Source: a virus. From it: a stretch of 22,097 bases of DNA. The stretch is taken from positions 1-22,097 of IMG/VR virus record IMGVR_UViG_3300038410_000021; one strand, written 5' to 3'. The notes under the pieces are model-generated. The model was given only the letters and a program-made list of their open reading frames with translations. It made no database searches and was not told where the DNA came from. A program made the translations under genes and the position numbers. Of the stretch, positions 4,676 through 18,658 are shown piece after piece (position 1 is the first letter of the stretch; each line of letters starts with the position of its first letter).

Positions 4676-6553
4676 TTATGCGCCCTTCATCGCGCCCGCG
4701 CTCGACAGGTCTAATCCTTCCACGTCTATCCAATGCACGCCATACGACTGCGTGCCCACGCTCTGTATCTCCAGGCTGAATGAGTTGACATCGCGCCCGA
4801 GCACTACGGTATCACCGTTGCGCTCAGTGGGATTCGGCATCACCTTCGTCTCAGGGTTGTCATCGCGCCGGTTGAAGTAGAAGCGGTGATCAATGACTGC
4901 CGGGCCGGCATCATGCATCCAAGTGGCCTTGCCAAGCGATACCACGCCACGTGGTCCGCCGGGCATAAACTCTTTCGTGCGCATGCGGAAGCGGACGGTG
5001 CCGCTGGACGAGAGCAATTGCGAATCATCCACATCCTGTGTCGATTCAACGTATACCTGCCCATTGCCGCTGCGCGAGTCGAGCGACAAGGCGCGACGCT
5101 GGCCGTCCACCCATGCCACCGTCTGCGCATCGACCAGTGGGCCGTGATCGGCAAAGGTGACGCGGATGCCCAGTTCGTTGAATCGCTGATAGTCCAGATA
5201 CCATATGCCGGTGTTATAGGTGGTGTCTGTGGCGCGGCGATAGAGGAATATCAGGCGGCGATTGGTAGAGTCATCGAGCAGCCTGCATGTTGCCAGATTC
5301 GCCACGCTAACGCGCCCCTCCCAGTCAATCGCGTCGGTGGCGGGGCTGGGTGAGTCGGCCAGCGTGCTAACCCATATGCCGTCGCGCGCTACCCATGCGG
5401 CCAGGGCGGGCGACCGGGGCGGCGTGAACACGGCGGCCCCGCGCCTGCTCACGCACCCGCGCGCGCCAGTCACCACCTCCATCATCTCCCCGGCGGCGAA
5501 GATGCTGTCAGAGTCGCGCGGCAGGCGATAGACCACATGCACGCTATCGTTGCAGAACACGCCGATGCGCCCAGGCATAACCACGCCAATCACGATGTTG
5601 TCCTGCCGACTGGTCTCCAGCGGGATGCCATACGCAGACGGCCACGAATCGGGATAGCCAGCCGGGGTGAAGCGCAGCACGCGCGGCTCCGCGACGGCCA
5701 CGCCCAGCAGCGAATCCTGGAATGGACCGAAGATTGTGGACATCACGCCGGGGGCTTCGTCGCGCTCCGTATCCAATCCGCCTATGCTGATGAGGCCATA
5801 TAGCGGCACGGTCAGGCTGCCAGTCTGCGTAAGAGTATCCGTTATGCTGGTCGTGCCAATCGCAGTCGTAGCCACCAATCCGCCATCGGGGAATCCGCCG
5901 CCGTCTACGCTGCGATACCAGCGAATCTGGTCGGCAAGCGCATTGGCCGGTGAGCCCGTGACGGTTGCAACCACGCCATCCTTGAGCGAGAATTCGCCGG
6001 TGCTCACGCTCGCGCCAGTCAGACTCTCGATGCCGCGTGTGCTGTCATACTCCGTCACCCAGTACACCAGCCCCGTCGTAGCGCTCATGGTGGACACGCC
6101 CTGCGTCACGCTCACCCCAATCGAGTATGTCGAGACTGACATACCAATCGTGTAGGAGGTCAAGCCGGCCGCCGCGCTCACATACTCGATGCGCCGGTTG
6201 CCAACGCCCGTTGCCACGTAATGCCGATTCGCATAGTGCGAGCCGACGACAGCCGATGTGCCGGTTGGCAGATTGTCGAGTAGCGAGAATGCCAGCGATG
6301 CGCTCACCGGCGATGCGTGCAGCGAGTTGCCCTCATGCACAATCACATACGCCGTGCTGCCGTCGAATCCGGCCTCGTATAGCCCCACGCCTGTTACGCC
6401 GCCGACATCCCCGGCCTGATCCCGACCGCGTGCCACGAACAGACCAATCTCCCCGACGCGATACTCCGCGCCATCGGTATCTTGCAGCGCGCCATCCGCG
6501 ATTAGCGTTGGCTCTTTTTCGTTGCATCCGGCTTCGGGGCTGAATGTTGCCAT
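4676..6553 (-). CDS. Nozzle-like / beta-propeller-type tail protein
   Basis: This 625-residue protein is rich in beta strands, without signal peptide or membrane segments. Residues about 160-260 look like an immunoglobulin or Fn3-like insertion (GLVYWVTEYDSTRGIESLTG and IRWYRSVDGGGFPDGG). The centre (about 270-460) carries repeated beta blades, with GYPDSWPSAYGIP and GRIGVFCNDSVHVVY. This pattern is like the tail nozzle or stabilisation proteins of short-tailed phages (the P22 gp10 type), which extend the tail tube and bind fibres. Neighbouring fibre genes on both sides fit that role. The start is ATG in a TAG-ATG context 11 bases after the previous stop, with no strong ribosome binding site. 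Homology is inferred from motifs only. Confidence 0.65.
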   Translation of the reverse strand: MATFSPEAGCNEKEPTLIADGALQDTDGAEYRVGEIGLFVARGRDQAGDVGGVTGVGLYEAGFDGSTAYVIVHEGNSLHASPVSASLAFSLLDNLPTGTSAVVGSHYANRHYVATGVGNRRIEYVSAAAGLTSYTIGMSVSTYSIGVSVTQGVSTMSATTGLVYWVTEYDSTRGIESLTGASVSTGEFSLKDGVVATVTGSPANALADQIRWYRSVDGGGFPDGGLVATTAIGTTSITDTLTQTGSLTVPLYGLISIGGLDTERDEAPGVMSTIFGPFQDSLLGVAVAEPRVLRFTPAGYPDSWPSAYGIPLETSRQDNIVIGVVMPGRIGVFCNDSVHVVYRLPRDSDSIFAAGEMMEVVTGARGCVSRRGAAVFTPPRSPALAAWVARDGIWVSTLADSPSPATDAIDWEGRVSVANLATCRLLDDSTNRRLIFLYRRATDTTYNTGIWYLDYQRFNELGIRVTFADHGPLVDAQTVAWVDGQRRALSLDSRSGNGQVYVESTQDVDDSQLLSSSGTVRFRMRTKEFMPGGPRGVVSLGKATWMHDAGPAVIDHRFYFNRRDDNPETKVMPNPTERNGDTVVLGRDVNSFSLEIQSVGTQSYGVHWIDVEGLDLSSAGAMKGA

Positions 6554-8622: not shown

Positions 8623-8943
8623 CTATGGATCCTTGTTCGTGCTGACACGGTTGTACGTAATGTGACCATACACCGCCACGGTATCGCTCAGGTTGATGCT
8701 CAGCGTATTGCCGGTCGTGGTGGTCATCAGCGGCGCATCCCGCGTGCCCGTTGCGCTGGCCCCGGAGTTGACGACGAGCGGCATCGGCCCGCTTATGTCG
8801 GTAGCGCCATCTGTAAACTTCACGCTCACCGTGCCATTAGCCACCAGCACGTAGTTGATGACCTCGTACTTGGTGTTGGCGACGGCGCTGGCCACCGTGT
8901 TGTTGCCGCTGGCCGAGATGCTGACGCCACTATGGACTATCAT
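8623..8943 (-). CDS. Small beta-rich phage protein (106 residues)
   Basis: The ATG at 8943 has AGGAG about 7 bases upstream and overlaps the end of the beta-helix gene by 14 bases. A longer frame to 9036 exists, but its first 31 residues lie inside the upstream gene and look like shadow sequence. The product has strands such as EVINYVLVANGTVSVKFTDG, then GPMPLVVNSGA and TLSINLSDTVAVYGHITY. I associate this pattern with a widespread small beta-sandwich protein of phage tail and head regions, of unproven role. It sits between two surface proteins and could be a fibre cap or decoration. Confidence 0.75.
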   Translation of the reverse strand: MIVHSGVSISASGNNTVASAVANTKYEVINYVLVANGTVSVKFTDGATDISGPMPLVVNSGASATGTRDAPLMTTTTGNTLSINLSDTVAVYGHITYNRVSTNKDP

Positions 8944-10840
8944 ATTCGCTCTCCTGCGGCAATGGCGACCTGGGGCCGACGTGAAGCAGCATGCGCTTCT
9001 TGGTGCTCCCCCCGCCGCCCTGGGCAACAAACTCATCCATGCCGATATCCACCGAGCCGCTTACTGATGCGCAATCGTTGTATGCCGCATAGCCGTGCGC
9101 GCTGGCGATGGAGTTGCAGATGTCAGCGGTGCGCCCGGCTGGCATCCCGGTCGCGGTGCCAGCGTCCTTGGCAGGGCTGGATGTCTGAATGTGATAGTTA
9201 TTAGAGGCGGCGTTTACAAACACCGGATCAGGGCAGCTATCCACATTGCCAGTCTGGAGAGTATCGAGCGCCGAACACGCATAGCTCGACCCGGCCCAAG
9301 TAGCAGCATTGCCAGCCCCCGTGATGTAGATATGGTTATGCTCGAACTTGTTGGAGGCATCGGTGGCATCCCATTGCACCTGCTTCACCGTGCCGTTGTA
9401 ATAGAATATGTTGTTGCGAATCAGATTGCCGGTAATCTCGGCGTTGTTGTCTGCTGCGAGCGCGCCACCCGCTGCGCCAATCACCGTGTTGTTGTAGATG
9501 AGGTTTCCGGCCATTGTGCCGGTCGCCTCTTGGCGGAATTGGAAGCTGAGGCCATCGCCTATTGTCGGGTTTAGGCAGAGATTGTTGTACACCTGATTGT
9601 TATCTGTGTGATTGCTCGACCCGCCGTTGGATGGGTGCCACTTGAAGCAGGTGCCGGAGTTGGCGATGATATTGTTGCGCACGATCAGGTTGTCGCAATG
9701 CGATTCGAACAGGATGGCCTTGCGCCCGCTACTATTAACTGTATTGCCGCAGCCGTCGAAGATGTTGTCCTCAACGATTGTGCCGGTGAAGTCCCCCGTC
9801 GTGCTGTAGGAGCAGCATGGAGCATCAGAGGTGAATGTGGTGCAGTTGGGTGTGCCGGACGTTCCTGCGCCAAGTGTTGTGAGGTCGCCTATACCATGCA
9901 CCCAGTTGCGCTGGATGACGGCGCTCACCGTGCCATCTGTAACGGTTGTGATGTGCAGCGGCTCGCTGGACGTGTAGGCCATCTCATTATCTGTGATGCT
10001 GACATTGGATGCGCTATCGACATGAACGGGCCGCGCCGATCCATTGCCAGAATCGTTGAAATACTTGAATGAGCAATCCTTCACGGTGGCGTGGTCAGAT
10101 GCAGATGTAATGTTGATGGCTGAGTTTAGGTTATAGCGGAAGTGGATGCCGCGAAAGATGATATAGTCGCCAGTAATCTGCGTGATGAACTGATTGTTCT
10201 CTCCATTGGCCCACGGCTCAGACGGCAGAGATCCTCCCCAGCGCACCGTCAGAATTGTGTCGGCACCATCGGTGCTGAATGCGTCGTATTGTGCGGCCAC
10301 AAGGTCGAGAGAGGCGCGTCGGGGCGTGATGCCACCGCTGGGCGTCTGTGCCCATAACGCCTTCTTGCCGGCGCTTGGTATATGAAACCACGCCTCGCCA
10401 CAAGTGCCGGGGATATTACGACAGCCGGTATCGGCGCTTCCCGCTCCGCAATCGGAGCATTGCGTCCACCCAGCCCCGGCCAACTCGTTCATGTTCTCAA
10501 AGTAGACGGCGCTCGTGGCAATATCGCCCACAGCCGACCATCCATTCCATTGCAGAATTAACTCATTGCCCGCCGTGCAAGATTGCGAGAACGTGGCGTT
10601 GTTAAAATTGTACACGCCATCAGTTACATTGATTGTGTCGCCGCATGCGCCCCCGGCCGCCGCGTTGGCGATGCTGTTGTAGGCACCCACTCCGTCTGGG
10701 GCGGCCGCGCAGGAGTTCGCGCTACCATCGCCGTTGTTGGTGCAGGGCGTCTTGACATACTTCGTTGCTCCCCACACCGGCGAGGCAAGAAGAAGCAGCA
10801 ATGCTATATAAGCGAATGCGTTGCGTAGCGTGCGCATCAT
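8930..10840 (-). CDS. Secreted-type Cys-rich parallel beta-helix protein
   Basis: The ATG at 10840 overlaps the upstream stop as ATGA and gives 636 residues. The frame is open further upstream (to 10942), but that part lies inside the previous gene. Residues 3-24 form a Sec-type signal peptide: basic RTLR, then AFAYIALLLLLASPV, with a likely cut after VWG at residue 24. About 20 cysteines follow, all in the mature part. Residues about 224-511 show Asn-rich beta-helix coils (SNVSITDNEMAY, NLIVRNNIIANSG, GNLIRNNIFYYNG). Then DPVFVNAASNNYHIQ, SSPAKDAG and DIGMDEF appear, a closing pattern common in secreted bacterial beta-helix proteins. A GGGGS linker and a short basic tail end the protein. It may act on surface glycans. 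The signal peptide is unexpected for a virion protein. Confidence 0.8.
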   Translation of the reverse strand: MMRTLRNAFAYIALLLLLASPVWGATKYVKTPCTNNGDGSANSCAAAPDGVGAYNSIANAAAGGACGDTINVTDGVYNFNNATFSQSCTAGNELILQWNGWSAVGDIATSAVYFENMNELAGAGWTQCSDCGAGSADTGCRNIPGTCGEAWFHIPSAGKKALWAQTPSGGITPRRASLDLVAAQYDAFSTDGADTILTVRWGGSLPSEPWANGENNQFITQITGDYIIFRGIHFRYNLNSAINITSASDHATVKDCSFKYFNDSGNGSARPVHVDSASNVSITDNEMAYTSSEPLHITTVTDGTVSAVIQRNWVHGIGDLTTLGAGTSGTPNCTTFTSDAPCCSYSTTGDFTGTIVEDNIFDGCGNTVNSSGRKAILFESHCDNLIVRNNIIANSGTCFKWHPSNGGSSNHTDNNQVYNNLCLNPTIGDGLSFQFRQEATGTMAGNLIYNNTVIGAAGGALAADNNAEITGNLIRNNIFYYNGTVKQVQWDATDASNKFEHNHIYITGAGNAATWAGSSYACSALDTLQTGNVDSCPDPVFVNAASNNYHIQTSSPAKDAGTATGMPAGRTADICNSIASAHGYAAYNDCASVSGSVDIGMDEFVAQGGGGSTKKRMLLHVGPRSPLPQESEYDSP

Positions 10841-15590: not shown

Positions 15591-17563
15591 TGCGGCTCAC
15601 CCGCTCCCTGTGCCGGTGTATTGGCTCCGCGCCCGCCACCGTTGGCTGGAGTGCTGCGGCCTTTCTTGCCGGGCGCGCCGCCACCTGCTCCTGCGCCACC
15701 GCCATCCGGTGCCTTAATCGTGTTGGCGAGCCCGAACGCTTGCAGACGGGCAACGATTTCCTCTGGGTCTTGAATCATAATTCTCTCGAGCCCCTTAACC
15801 CGAAATCCCTCGTCGCCCCAGCGCCGCACATACTCGTTCCAATCGACAGACGCCGCCGTCAGGGGATTCGAGAGCATCACCGTAGCGAAGTCCCTGAAAT
15901 CATTGCTCGCCTGCTGCTTGGTGAGCATGCTGCGCGCACCGACGAAGTTGAGATCGGTCGTGGCGTCGATATCGAAGTAACTCACGCTCGTCGTCTCGCT
16001 CTCGCCCACGCGCCTGAACACCTTGGCCTCGTCGTCCAGGTTGATGTAATAGAGGTCATTGATCAGGCGTCCCATCACCGGCAATTCGTCGCGCTCGATA
16101 AGCACGGCGAGTTGATCGGCGTTCTGGAGCGCCGCCGCCGTCACCGCCTGAATCTCCGTGGCCGTGTTCTCGCCTGTCTGCTTCTGAATCCCCTGCACCG
16201 GGTCGCGGGCGTTCATGGCGTTGCGCATGGTCTGCGATAGCAATGAGAGGCCCTGTAGCGCAATACCAAGGCCGGTGTAATCCTTCTCCAGCGGCACCAG
16301 TTGGGTGACGTCGCCCTGCACGGTGAAGTTCTGGCGCGGGCGCTTGCGCTCCAAATCCTTCGCCAGCGTGTTGCCCAGTTCGCCGCCGATGATGTAGTTC
16401 TGATAGACACTCTCGATAAGCGCCTGCACGGTCAGAATCAACTCGGTATCGCTCACATCCTGCAAGTAGCGCACGACGGTGAGTGGCGACAGGCCGTATA
16501 TGCCGCGCCCGGTCGGCAGGATGGTGAGCACCCCGCCCTGTATCTGCCCGTTGCGCTGCGAAGACTGCATCGCCTGAATGCACACGCCATTGACTATGCG
16601 GATGATTACGCTGCCGCGCGCATCGAGGCCGCCAATCTTCTGCGCCACCTCACCGGGCACGATGCCATCGAATTCCCACCCGCCGTAATAGCCGTATTCC
16701 TCGATGTCCTCCATATCCTCGCGGGTCAGATTCTCGGTGAGCAACTTGGGGTGCTGCGTGCCGTCCGGGCCGGTAGCGGATGATTCGCTCGGGGCCTCAG
16801 TCTCCAGCACTTTGGCGATTCCCTCTGCATCCCAGTTCGGGTCGTTCATCAGCGCCAGCAATTCCTCATCGCGTATGCGGAAACGCTTGACCTTCCACTT
16901 CAACTGGTCAAAGCGATTGGCGGATGGATCGAACCAGGTGTCATAGAGGTCGTCGGTCTCCAGCACCGGGTCGTCGAATACCGGGGCCATCACGTTTTGC
17001 AGCACGCTCATGATTGCGCCGGTCTGCGGATTGCGCAGGAAGCCGTCGAGCGATGTGCCGGTGGGGTCGGGAACTGGTATGCGGCGCGGCACCAGGCGCG
17101 TATCCGTCTTCCAGCGTGCCGTATAGGAGCCTAGGCCGAATACGAGCGAATCGCCAACCGTCTCGAAATTGGTGCGGAAGTTGCCGGGGCGCTCGCAACC
17201 GAACATCACCAGCCTGCTTACGCGTTTGGCCGCCTCGATATCCTCATCGCCAACCGGGTCGGCCTGCACATAGTCGCGCACGCCGAATAGCGAGCCGAGC
17301 AGAAGCGCCCGTAGCGTGTTCACTCCCTGATGCGACTCCGGCGTCTTGAGGAAGTTGATGGGCGACACGTCGAATTTGCCGCCGCTCGCCATCGGGTACG
17401 TCTTATTGGGCACATTGCCGGCGATTGGCTCGACGCGATAGTTGGACCAATTCTCATCCCAGCCGGGCTCGTACTCCTTGCGCACGCGATGCGCCTGCTC
17501 CACGCAATCGTTGATGAAGTCGGTGGCGGCCAGATCGCGCGGGCGATTGCCCAGATTAGCCAA
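15587..17563 (-). CDS. Portal (head-tail connector) protein
   Basis: This 658-residue protein lies two genes before the capsid gene, the usual place for a portal. The TTG start has AAAGG 7 bases upstream and overlaps the previous stop by 8 bases. The N-terminus is helical (AATDFINDCVEQAHRV). Residues about 130-165 hold FRTNFETVGDSLVFGLGSY. Later come YDTWFDPSANRFDQLKW, a wing-like EYGYYGGWEFDG and a long helical region with LSPLTVVRYLQDVSDTEL (about 355-372) as in portal stems. The C-terminal 50 residues are Gly/Pro/Ala-rich and probably disordered. It should form the dodecameric DNA channel that docks the terminase and adaptor. Identity rests on size, fold-like pattern and context. Confidence 0.8.
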   Translation of the reverse strand: MANLGNRPRDLAATDFINDCVEQAHRVRKEYEPGWDENWSNYRVEPIAGNVPNKTYPMASGGKFDVSPINFLKTPESHQGVNTLRALLLGSLFGVRDYVQADPVGDEDIEAAKRVSRLVMFGCERPGNFRTNFETVGDSLVFGLGSYTARWKTDTRLVPRRIPVPDPTGTSLDGFLRNPQTGAIMSVLQNVMAPVFDDPVLETDDLYDTWFDPSANRFDQLKWKVKRFRIRDEELLALMNDPNWDAEGIAKVLETEAPSESSATGPDGTQHPKLLTENLTREDMEDIEEYGYYGGWEFDGIVPGEVAQKIGGLDARGSVIIRIVNGVCIQAMQSSQRNGQIQGGVLTILPTGRGIYGLSPLTVVRYLQDVSDTELILTVQALIESVYQNYIIGGELGNTLAKDLERKRPRQNFTVQGDVTQLVPLEKDYTGLGIALQGLSLLSQTMRNAMNARDPVQGIQKQTGENTATEIQAVTAAALQNADQLAVLIERDELPVMGRLINDLYYINLDDEAKVFRRVGESETTSVSYFDIDATTDLNFVGARSMLTKQQASNDFRDFATVMLSNPLTAASVDWNEYVRRWGDEGFRVKGLERIMIQDPEEIVARLQAFGLANTIKAPDGGGAGAGGGAPGKKGRSTPANGGGRGANTPAQGAGEPQ

Positions 17564-18395
17564 TGCTCAACCTTTGCGCCTCGGTGGGCTGCTTGCCGGC
17601 CAATTCCATCTTGTGGCGCGCCTGGTAGTACTGCTCAACCTGGCCGAGCGATAGCGTCTTCACGTGGTCGAAGCGCACGCCGGGGTGGACGGCGAGCGTG
17701 AACCCGGCGCGTCCGCACTCGACGGAGAAGTTGACATCCTCGCCGCCGCGCACCTTTCTGTCGTCCAGATAGGTGAAGTAGAATGGGACATCGCCAACGC
17801 CGTGCGGCTTAGGCGCGAACACCCGGCGGCGGATGGCGATTGCGCCAGTGCCGACGATAGGCACGCGATACGGTGTTACCATCTCCGGCGGCGGGGCCGG
17901 CAGGTTGTAGCAGCGGTTCTCGGCATCCACGCCGTAGTTGTTGACGCGCAGCATGGTCTCAGGGTCCATGTTGGCGACCCACACCGGGATAATCGCGCCC
18001 ACAACATCCGCATCCTTCACGGCGCACAGGTGCCAGAAGTTCTCCGGTGCCATCTGGTCGGCATCGATCATGTATAGCCAATCGTCATCCGTATCTTGCA
18101 GAAAGGTTTTCACGATGCTATTGCGCGCATAGTCGATGCCGCGCTTACCCACCTCCAGATGCACGGTGAAGCGGAACGGGCACTCGGGTATTGCATTGGA
18201 GGCCATCATGCGCGCGAATAGCATGGCAATCGTGAAGTTCACATTCCCATCGACCGTGGGCACTGCGACGAACACGCCCTGCTTGCGATTGGGCTGGAGC
18301 GCCTCGCGGCGACTGCGCGCCTCGGCAATGTTCACAATCGGTGCGGGCGCGGAGGATGCCATCGCGCTCGGTCTCTGTCGCCTAATCTTCGCCAC
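17556..18395 (-). CDS. Glycosyltransferase-like protein, GT-A type
   Basis: The GTG start at 18395 overlaps the upstream stop (TAGTG) and has AAGGAAGGAG 10 bases before it, giving 279 residues. An ATG 33 bases further in is a weaker alternative. The core starts with VFVAVPTVDG (about 41-50), has IDYARNSIVKTFL (86-98) and YMIDADQMAP (107-116), whose Asp-Ala-Asp fits a metal/sugar-nucleotide DxD motif. GTGAIAIRR (182-190), GGEDVNFSVE (217-226) and VHPGVRFDHV (236-245) follow. This order matches family-2-like GT-A transferases. No membrane segment is present, so it is cytoplasmic. It lies between head genes, which suggests a virion protein or host glycan as acceptor. The acceptor cannot be told from the sequence. 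Confidence 0.8.
   Translation of the reverse strand: MAKIRRQRPSAMASSAPAPIVNIAEARSRREALQPNRKQGVFVAVPTVDGNVNFTIAMLFARMMASNAIPECPFRFTVHLEVGKRGIDYARNSIVKTFLQDTDDDWLYMIDADQMAPENFWHLCAVKDADVVGAIIPVWVANMDPETMLRVNNYGVDAENRCYNLPAPPPEMVTPYRVPIVGTGAIAIRRRVFAPKPHGVGDVPFYFTYLDDRKVRGGEDVNFSVECGRAGFTLAVHPGVRFDHVKTLSLGQVEQYYQARHKMELAGKQPTEAQRLSIG
17571..17575 (-). promoter_or_regulatory. Ribosome binding site AAAGG supporting a TTG portal start
   Basis: AAAGG ends 7 bases before the TTG at 17563. No ATG in the right frame lies near the N-terminus, so this site decides the portal start despite the rare codon. Confidence 0.55.
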
Positions 18396-18658
18396 TAATG
18401 CACGTCTCCTTCCTTGAATCTGGCATCGGCAAGCCACGCCTCAAGCAGCCGCAGCGCATTCTTGCGAATGGCGTAGGCTGCGTGTTTAGCCATGCGCTTG
18501 CGCCCGGCCTCCTGGTACTTGAGCGCCAGCCACATGAAGGCGTGAACCTCGTCTATGCGCACCTGATAGCCAGATACGTTCAGGATGGTCAGGCGGCACG
18601 GGTCGGCCAGCCCGAACGTGACGCTGCGCCGGTCGTCTGGATCAATAAGCCTTGCCAC
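18395..18658 (-). CDS. Unknown small helical protein (87 residues, start uncertain)
   Basis: The frame is open to an ATG at 18760, but that would overlap the preceding gene by 119 bases and has no ribosome binding site. A GTG at 18658 overlaps it by only 17 bases and is preferred. The product has a short beta-like start (RSVTFGLADPCRLTILNVSG), then FMWLALKYQEAGRKRMAKHA and KNALRLLEAWLADARF, two amphipathic helices. No signal peptide or known motif. It is followed by the glycosyltransferase with a TAGTG junction. I do not recognise the family. Confidence 0.6.
   Translation of the reverse strand: MARLIDPDDRRSVTFGLADPCRLTILNVSGYQVRIDEVHAFMWLALKYQEAGRKRMAKHAAYAIRKNALRLLEAWLADARFKEGDVH
18406..18415 (-). 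promoter_or_regulatory. Strong ribosome binding site for the glycosyltransferase gene
   Basis: AAGGAAGGAG lies 10 bases before the GTG at 18395, inside the last codons of the upstream gene. It favours this GTG over both the upstream ATG at 18437, which would overlap the other gene by 43 bases, and the downstream ATG at 18362. Confidence 0.6.

What the first reader, a model, noticed from the sequence alone, without database searches (positions are those of the whole stretch)
8930..10840. Tail operon encodes a signal-peptide, Cys-rich beta-helix protein
Virion proteins normally assemble in the cytoplasm, yet this one has a clear Sec signal and about 20 cysteines. It also closes with a pattern (DPVFVNA, SSPAKDAG, DIGMDEF) common in secreted bacterial beta-helix proteins. 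It is translationally coupled to tail fibre A (ATGA). It could be a phage-encoded exported glycan enzyme or shield that changes the infected cell's surface, or a captured bacterial gene on its way to becoming a fibre.
Basis: partly seen in the sequence, partly recalled or inferred. Interest (0 to 1): 0.65.

Follow-up and report, generated by a model that had tools for sequence, protein, structure and literature searches.

The report
Exported beta-helix protein in phage tail operon
A phage known only from environmental DNA carries, among its tail-fibre genes, a cysteine-rich beta-helix protein with a convincing export signal; other phages do the same, sometimes on ordinary-looking tail fibres, which suggests that some phages send part of their host-binding equipment out of the infected cell.

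Summary
The 636-aa ORF (8930-10840, minus strand) starts in an ATGA overlap with fibre A, has a textbook Sec signal (predicted cut VWG|ATKY), 20 cysteines and a right-handed beta-helix core. It is the only one of 20 window proteins with a signal; none of ~214 genes in 14 sibling-phage loci has one. It sits in the variable fibre slot of a conserved tail operon and lacks the ~180-aa N-terminal domain that fibre A and the spike share.

It is not a one-off. Two phage orthologues (31-33% identity) have different signals of the same design. The wider CxxNGDG beta-helix family in viral contigs mostly has signals. In several phages, runs of neighbouring tail genes carry them. One homologous pair (50% identical) differs by exactly the signal, and one ordinary-looking fibre has a signal added right at its usual start.

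Best reading: a Sec-exported, disulfide-bonded, probably glycan-active protein working at the envelope or after lysis. Joining virions after export is the most novel alternative. Vestigial bacterial capture is less likely. All of this is sequence evidence; SignalP was not available.

The parts
8930..10840 (-). Signal-peptide, Cys-rich right-handed beta-helix protein, 636 aa (the finding)
   Evidence: ORF and translation; signal score and 20 Cys; fold
10769..10840 (-). Sec signal peptide, residues 1-24, predicted cut VWG|ATKY
   Evidence: orthologous signals in L025 and L121; predicted helix 3-18
10837..10840 (-). ATGA overlap of the fibre A stop with the start codon
   Evidence: sequence
9323..10168 (-). 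Beta-helix core, residues 225-506, with invariant Asn residues at successive turns
   Evidence: AlphaFold2 strands; VIA-align; invariant residues
9029..9229 (-). C-terminal block, residues 538-604: DPVFVNA...SSPAKDAG...DIGMDEF
   Evidence: translation; alignment with L025 and L121
10837..12069 (-). Fibre A, with the N-terminal domain (residues 1-180) shared with the spike and with sibling-phage fibres
6565..8622 (-). Pectate-lyase-like tail spike with the same N-terminal domain and no signal peptide
   Evidence: Pfam PF12708 2.8e-19; phrog_2234 tail spike; shared domain 56% identical
8623..8943 (-). 106-aa gene, overlaps the end of the beta-helix gene by 14 bases; part of the same insertion
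4676..6553 (-). Conserved gene that closes the variable slot; follows fibre A directly in sibling phages
   Evidence: synteny; phrog_511 1.5e-5

Best explanation
The gene is translated with the tail operon, coupled to fibre A. The Sec machinery recognises residues 1-24, signal peptidase I cuts at VWG|ATKY, and the ~612-residue beta-helix folds and forms disulfides outside the cytoplasm. It lacks the N-terminal domain shared by fibre A and the spike, so it is probably not built into the tail the way they are. It acts in the envelope or is released at lysis, where it binds or cuts surface or matrix glycans, freeing progeny or clearing receptors from debris. Seen in the sequence: signal, cysteines, beta-helix (low-confidence model), operon position, missing shared domain, conservation of signal and Cys in phage orthologues. 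Inferred: export, cleavage, disulfides, glycan target and role. My split: export about 0.8; export plus a free glycan-active or glycan-binding role about 0.5.
For: Only window protein that passes the signal test; 20 Cys. No signals in ~214 sibling-phage genes, so the test is not permissive here. Orthologues in two other phage contigs, L025 (33% over 637 aa, E 3e-73) and L121 (31%, E 2e-41), both open with a different but equally good signal; nine Cys are invariant in all three. N-terminal domain shared by fibre A, the spike and the sibling fibres is absent. Most family members with the CxxNGDG motif in viral contigs have signals. Best solved match RbmB (Z 31.9), a beta-helix polysaccharide lyase; its authors note a predicted signal peptide and made it through the periplasm because of disulfides (PMC11637428).
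Against: No SignalP run and no experiment. A shared fold does not show activity: RbmB, an adhesin, epimerases and tailspikes score within a few Z units, and no catalytic site was identified. Relatives with signals include proteins of virion families, which favours the exported-fibre rival. How a phage protein would cross the outer membrane before lysis is not explained. The Shine-Dalgarno before 10840 is weak.
Confidence: 0.5

Rival explanations
1. Exported fibre: the protein is exported, oxidised and trimmed in the periplasm, then joins the virion at or after lysis, so that tail assembly is split between two compartments.
For: It sits in the fibre slot. In other phages signals occur on proteins of virion families: L029 and L067 fibres (phrog_10330 virion structural protein, 3e-20 and 1e-16), L024 (head decoration 9e-6), L118 306-aa protein (virion structural 3e-5), L022 (major tail protein 2e-5), L027 (tail fibre assembly 2e-5). 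The L025 orthologue ends in a domain of phage family phrog_15388 (1.7e-11). The fibre C-terminal domain also matches a Synechococcus phage S-CAM1 virion structural protein.
Against: The window protein has no recognisable virion-attachment domain. No virion proteomics exists. Several PHROG matches are weak and cover one domain only.
Confidence: 0.25
2. Vestigial capture: a bacterial secreted beta-helix gene was picked up recently as fibre raw material and the signal peptide is a leftover.
For: Lowest GC (0.570) and codon fit (0.113) of the larger window genes. Similar C-terminal blocks occur in bacterial secreted proteins (L017, L018). DUF11 and ASH-type domains, as in secreted bacterial proteins, occur on some relatives.
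Against: Signals persist in orthologues only 31-33% identical. L067 shows a signal gained by an ordinary-looking phage fibre. No bacterial homologue as close as the phage ones was found (both searches limited). The spike has nearly the same codon deviation (0.128), so it may just mark the exchange slot.
Confidence: 0.12
3. The real start lies downstream (for example the GTG at V22), so the protein is cytoplasmic and the hydrophobic stretch is not translated.
For: A GTG codon exists at V22. The Shine-Dalgarno before 10840 is weak. A family member without a signal exists (L033).
Against: Only the ATG at 10840 gives the ATGA coupling. Both orthologues also open with signals. The GTG has no obvious Shine-Dalgarno.
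Confidence: 0.06

Closest known systems
RbmB of Vibrio cholerae (secreted beta-helix polysaccharide lyase)
   Same: Right-handed beta-helix fold (Z 31.9, 2.4 A over 317 residues); predicted signal peptide and disulfides (PMC11637428)
   Different: 12% identity; bacterial biofilm-dispersal gene, not a phage gene; no catalytic site mapped here
Beta-helix tailspikes of phages Sf6, Det7-like (Dettilon), HK620 and P22
   Same: Fold class (Z about 27-29); encoded among tail genes
   Different: No signal peptide (own knowledge); they carry a virion-binding N-terminal domain, which the window protein lacks (for the domain used by this phage group)
Orthologues in IMG/VR contigs L025 and L121
   Same: Signal, Cys-rich N-terminal cap, helix and C-terminal block over the whole length
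   Different: 31-33% identity; L025 adds DUF11 repeats and a phage-type C-terminal domain
Sec-signal proteins of unknown function in Porphyromonas gingivalis phages (PMC10367356)
   Same: Phage genes with Sec signals and no known function
   Different: Not described there as tail-operon beta-helix or fibre proteins
Woeseiaceae MAG secreted repeat proteins (L017, L018)
   Same: C-terminal beta-helix block and a signal-like N-terminus
   Different: 27-28% identity over under 200 aa; bacterial, about 1,140 aa, with further repeat domains

Membership tests
Right-handed parallel beta-helix proteins | Repeated coils of short parallel strands with turn ladders | tested here: met
   Regular short strands at 225-506 in AlphaFold2 (block pLDDT mostly 50-83) with invariant Asn at successive turns; VIA-align Z 27-32 against solved beta-helices. 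Foldseek alone was weak.
Sec / signal peptidase I substrates | Positive n-region, hydrophobic core, small residues at -3 and -1 | tested here: met
Sec / signal peptidase I substrates | Actual export and cleavage | not testable with these tools
   needs fractionation and N-terminal sequencing
Tailspike of this phage group | The ~180-aa N-terminal domain shared by fibre A, spike and sibling fibres | tested here: not met
   BLAST with fibre A residues 1-180 hits the spike (56%) and the sibling fibres but not the beta-helix protein
Polysaccharide lyase / glycoside hydrolase | Match to a curated enzyme family | tested here: not met
   No Pfam, NCBIfam or PHROGs match
Polysaccharide lyase / glycoside hydrolase | Catalytic residues and activity | not tested
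   Only fold similarity; invariant polar residues such as E293, H296, H315 and E379 are untested candidates

The most novel reading that the evidence does not exclude
Some tailed phages finish part of their receptor-binding apparatus outside the cytoplasm: fibre and beta-helix proteins are exported by Sec, oxidised and trimmed, and join or assist virions at lysis. Signals are gained and lost as an exact N-terminal module, and the window gene is one instance.
Probability: 0.25. Interest if true: 0.9.

Novelty: new variant of a known kind. Interest (0 to 1): 0.62.

Why it matters
Tailed-phage virion parts are generally taken to be made and assembled in the cytoplasm; one phage study even used the lack of signal peptides as support for phage origin of proteins (PMC6199706). 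Recurrent signal-bearing genes in tail modules point either to a class of exported phage proteins that remodel host surfaces at the end of infection, or to a two-compartment route for building fibres. Both can be tested directly by virion proteomics and cell fractionation.

Tried and rejected
The first protein scan of viral contigs found only a distant relative, and the phage and plasmid collections had no match; a motif scan was needed. A broad YYV pattern was too strict. The genome-contig scan and 398 bacterial genomes gave no close bacterial homologue, but the first is pattern-limited and the second had no positive control, so neither proves absence. The two-sequence AlphaFold2 model was poor, the three-sequence one modest. 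No paper reporting signal peptides on tail-fibre modules was found; the library is partial. L095 passes the signal rule but looks like a false positive. I dropped the idea that the invariant Asn residues of the core are catalytic: most sit at successive turns, as in a structural ladder. I had first taken the L025 C-terminus for a fibre tip from memory; the test supports only 'phage family of unknown function'. The host was not determined.

Full report
Observation. The gene at 10840-8930 (minus strand) is open over 636 codons, starts in an ATGA overlap with fibre A, and overlaps the next gene by 14 bases. The translation opens MMRTLRNAFAYIALLLLLASPVWG|ATKYVKTPCTNNGDGSANSCAA. By a von Heijne-type score combined with hydrophobicity and charge rules, it is the only one of 20 window proteins that passes (score 9.4), and it has 20 Cys. 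None of about 214 genes in 14 loci from sibling phages passes, so the rule is not permissive in this phage group.

Place in the genome. The window is a 22,097-base virus record. Portal scans gave eleven loci (69-79% identical; L003, L012 and L013 are near-copies). They show a fixed order: terminase..., portal, scaffold, major capsid, two small genes, fibre A. After fibre A, the homologue of 4676-6553 follows directly in L005, L010 and L014, and after about 150 bp in L008; L012 has one extra spike between them. The window phage has the beta-helix gene, the 106-aa gene and the spike in that slot. Fibre A and the spike share a ~180-aa N-terminal domain that is also in the sibling fibres; the beta-helix protein lacks it. 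That this domain is the virion anchor is my inference from its being the conserved part of otherwise variable fibres. The beta-helix gene has the lowest GC (0.570) and codon fit (0.113) of the larger genes, with the spike next, so the slot looks like an exchange site.

Relatives. A motif scan (CxxNGDG[ST]xxxCA) found 17 viral loci. Thirteen have the motif in a long frame; merging copies of one phage leaves 10 lineages. Seven pass the signal rule (L019, L020/L023, L021, L024, L025, L026/L029, L028), two more (L022/L027, L031) have long hydrophobic N-termini that miss on charge or position, and one (L033) has none. The motif lies just after the signal, so the scan is not independent of N-terminal type, but it does not require a signal. 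L025 encodes a full orthologue (33% over 637 aa, E 3e-73) in a phage that shares the 12070, fibre-A C-terminal and 4676 families with the window; it adds DUF11 repeats and a C-terminal domain of phage family phrog_15388. A second scan with a C-terminal motif found L121 (31%, E 2e-41, 40 Cys), again with a signal. The three signals differ in letters but not in design. Nine Cys are invariant.

Wider pattern. In seven whole contigs genes that pass the signal rule are adjacent more often than chance (13 adjacent pairs against 3.4 expected; 0 of 100,000 shuffles). The contigs were chosen because they hold such genes; adjacency was not a criterion for the choice, although I had seen the runs in the loci before testing. 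Single contigs are significant only in part (G004 0.0007, G005 0.024, G008 0.032, G006 0.07). L067 has four in a row: a fibre, two small proteins and a lectin-domain protein. Phage context is confirmed by portal, capsid, terminase, ejection and tail families in L019, L021, L023 and L031. To avoid choosing by signal, I probed with a fibre C-terminal domain: of 76 complete carriers, only L037/L038 (the L029 phage) and L067 have convincing signals, so signals on fibres are rare. The L067 fibre reads MNKLFKIIAILILFATTSVHA|ADTKVSALTDI, where other carriers begin MAEDKKITELTAL or MADKKTTALTEL: the signal is added right at the usual start. The L029 and L033 beta-helix proteins are 50% identical over 516 aa (E 4e-167) and align from residue 24 of the one to residue 2 of the other; the neighbouring gene differs in signal status too (37%).

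Structure. AlphaFold2 with three sequences gives beta-helix coils at about 225-506 (block pLDDT mostly 50-83), the rest mostly under 50. VIA-align's best hit is RbmB, Z 31.9, closely followed by PfbA, polygalacturonases, tailspikes and epimerases. Foldseek alone is weak. The fold class is well supported; the activity is not. RbmB is a useful analogue because its authors, wary of disulfides in the cytoplasm, produced it through the periplasm and note a predicted signal (PMC11637428).

Interpretation. Export is the best reading of the N-terminus. A free exported glycan-active protein fits the window gene because the shared N-terminal domain is missing. Joining virions after export fits some relatives better, because there signals occur on proteins of virion families. 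Leftover capture is disfavoured by the signals in strongly diverged phage orthologues, but not excluded.

Literature. P. gingivalis phages are reported to encode Sec-signal proteins of unknown function (PMC10367356). Another study took the lack of signals as support for phage origin (PMC6199706). I found no report of signal-bearing tail-fibre runs, in a partial library.

Limits. No SignalP, no proteomics, no known host, incomplete contigs, home-made gene calling, and only three full-length orthologues.

Noticed in passing
L067:4216-8346: Four consecutive signal-peptide genes, including a tail fibre with a virion-structural C-terminal domain and a Laminin_G_3 lectin-domain protein.
   Followed up: partly
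L029:4774-6839 and L033:3281-5274: Two homologous neighbouring genes that both carry a signal in one phage and both lack it in the other; the beta-helix pair is 50% identical and differs by exactly the signal.
   Followed up: yes
L121:6564-9020: An 819-aa protein with a signal sits just upstream of the beta-helix orthologue; the next-but-one gene upstream is a tail fibre (phrog_11439) without a signal.
   Followed up: partly
L019:1140-6145: Three tandem beta-helix genes, two passing the signal rule and the third with a hydrophobic N-terminus, flanked by further signal and lipoprotein genes in a tail region.
   Followed up: partly
window 17556-18437: A glycosyltransferase-like gene (weak Pfam and PHROG matches) overlaps the portal gene start and is kept at 64-74% identity in the sibling phages.
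   Followed up: no
L008:15517-16161: A Cys-rich 214-aa gene, by eye a zinc-finger/HNH-like homing-type protein, is inserted just before fibre A in a sibling phage, another insertion at this slot.
   Followed up: no
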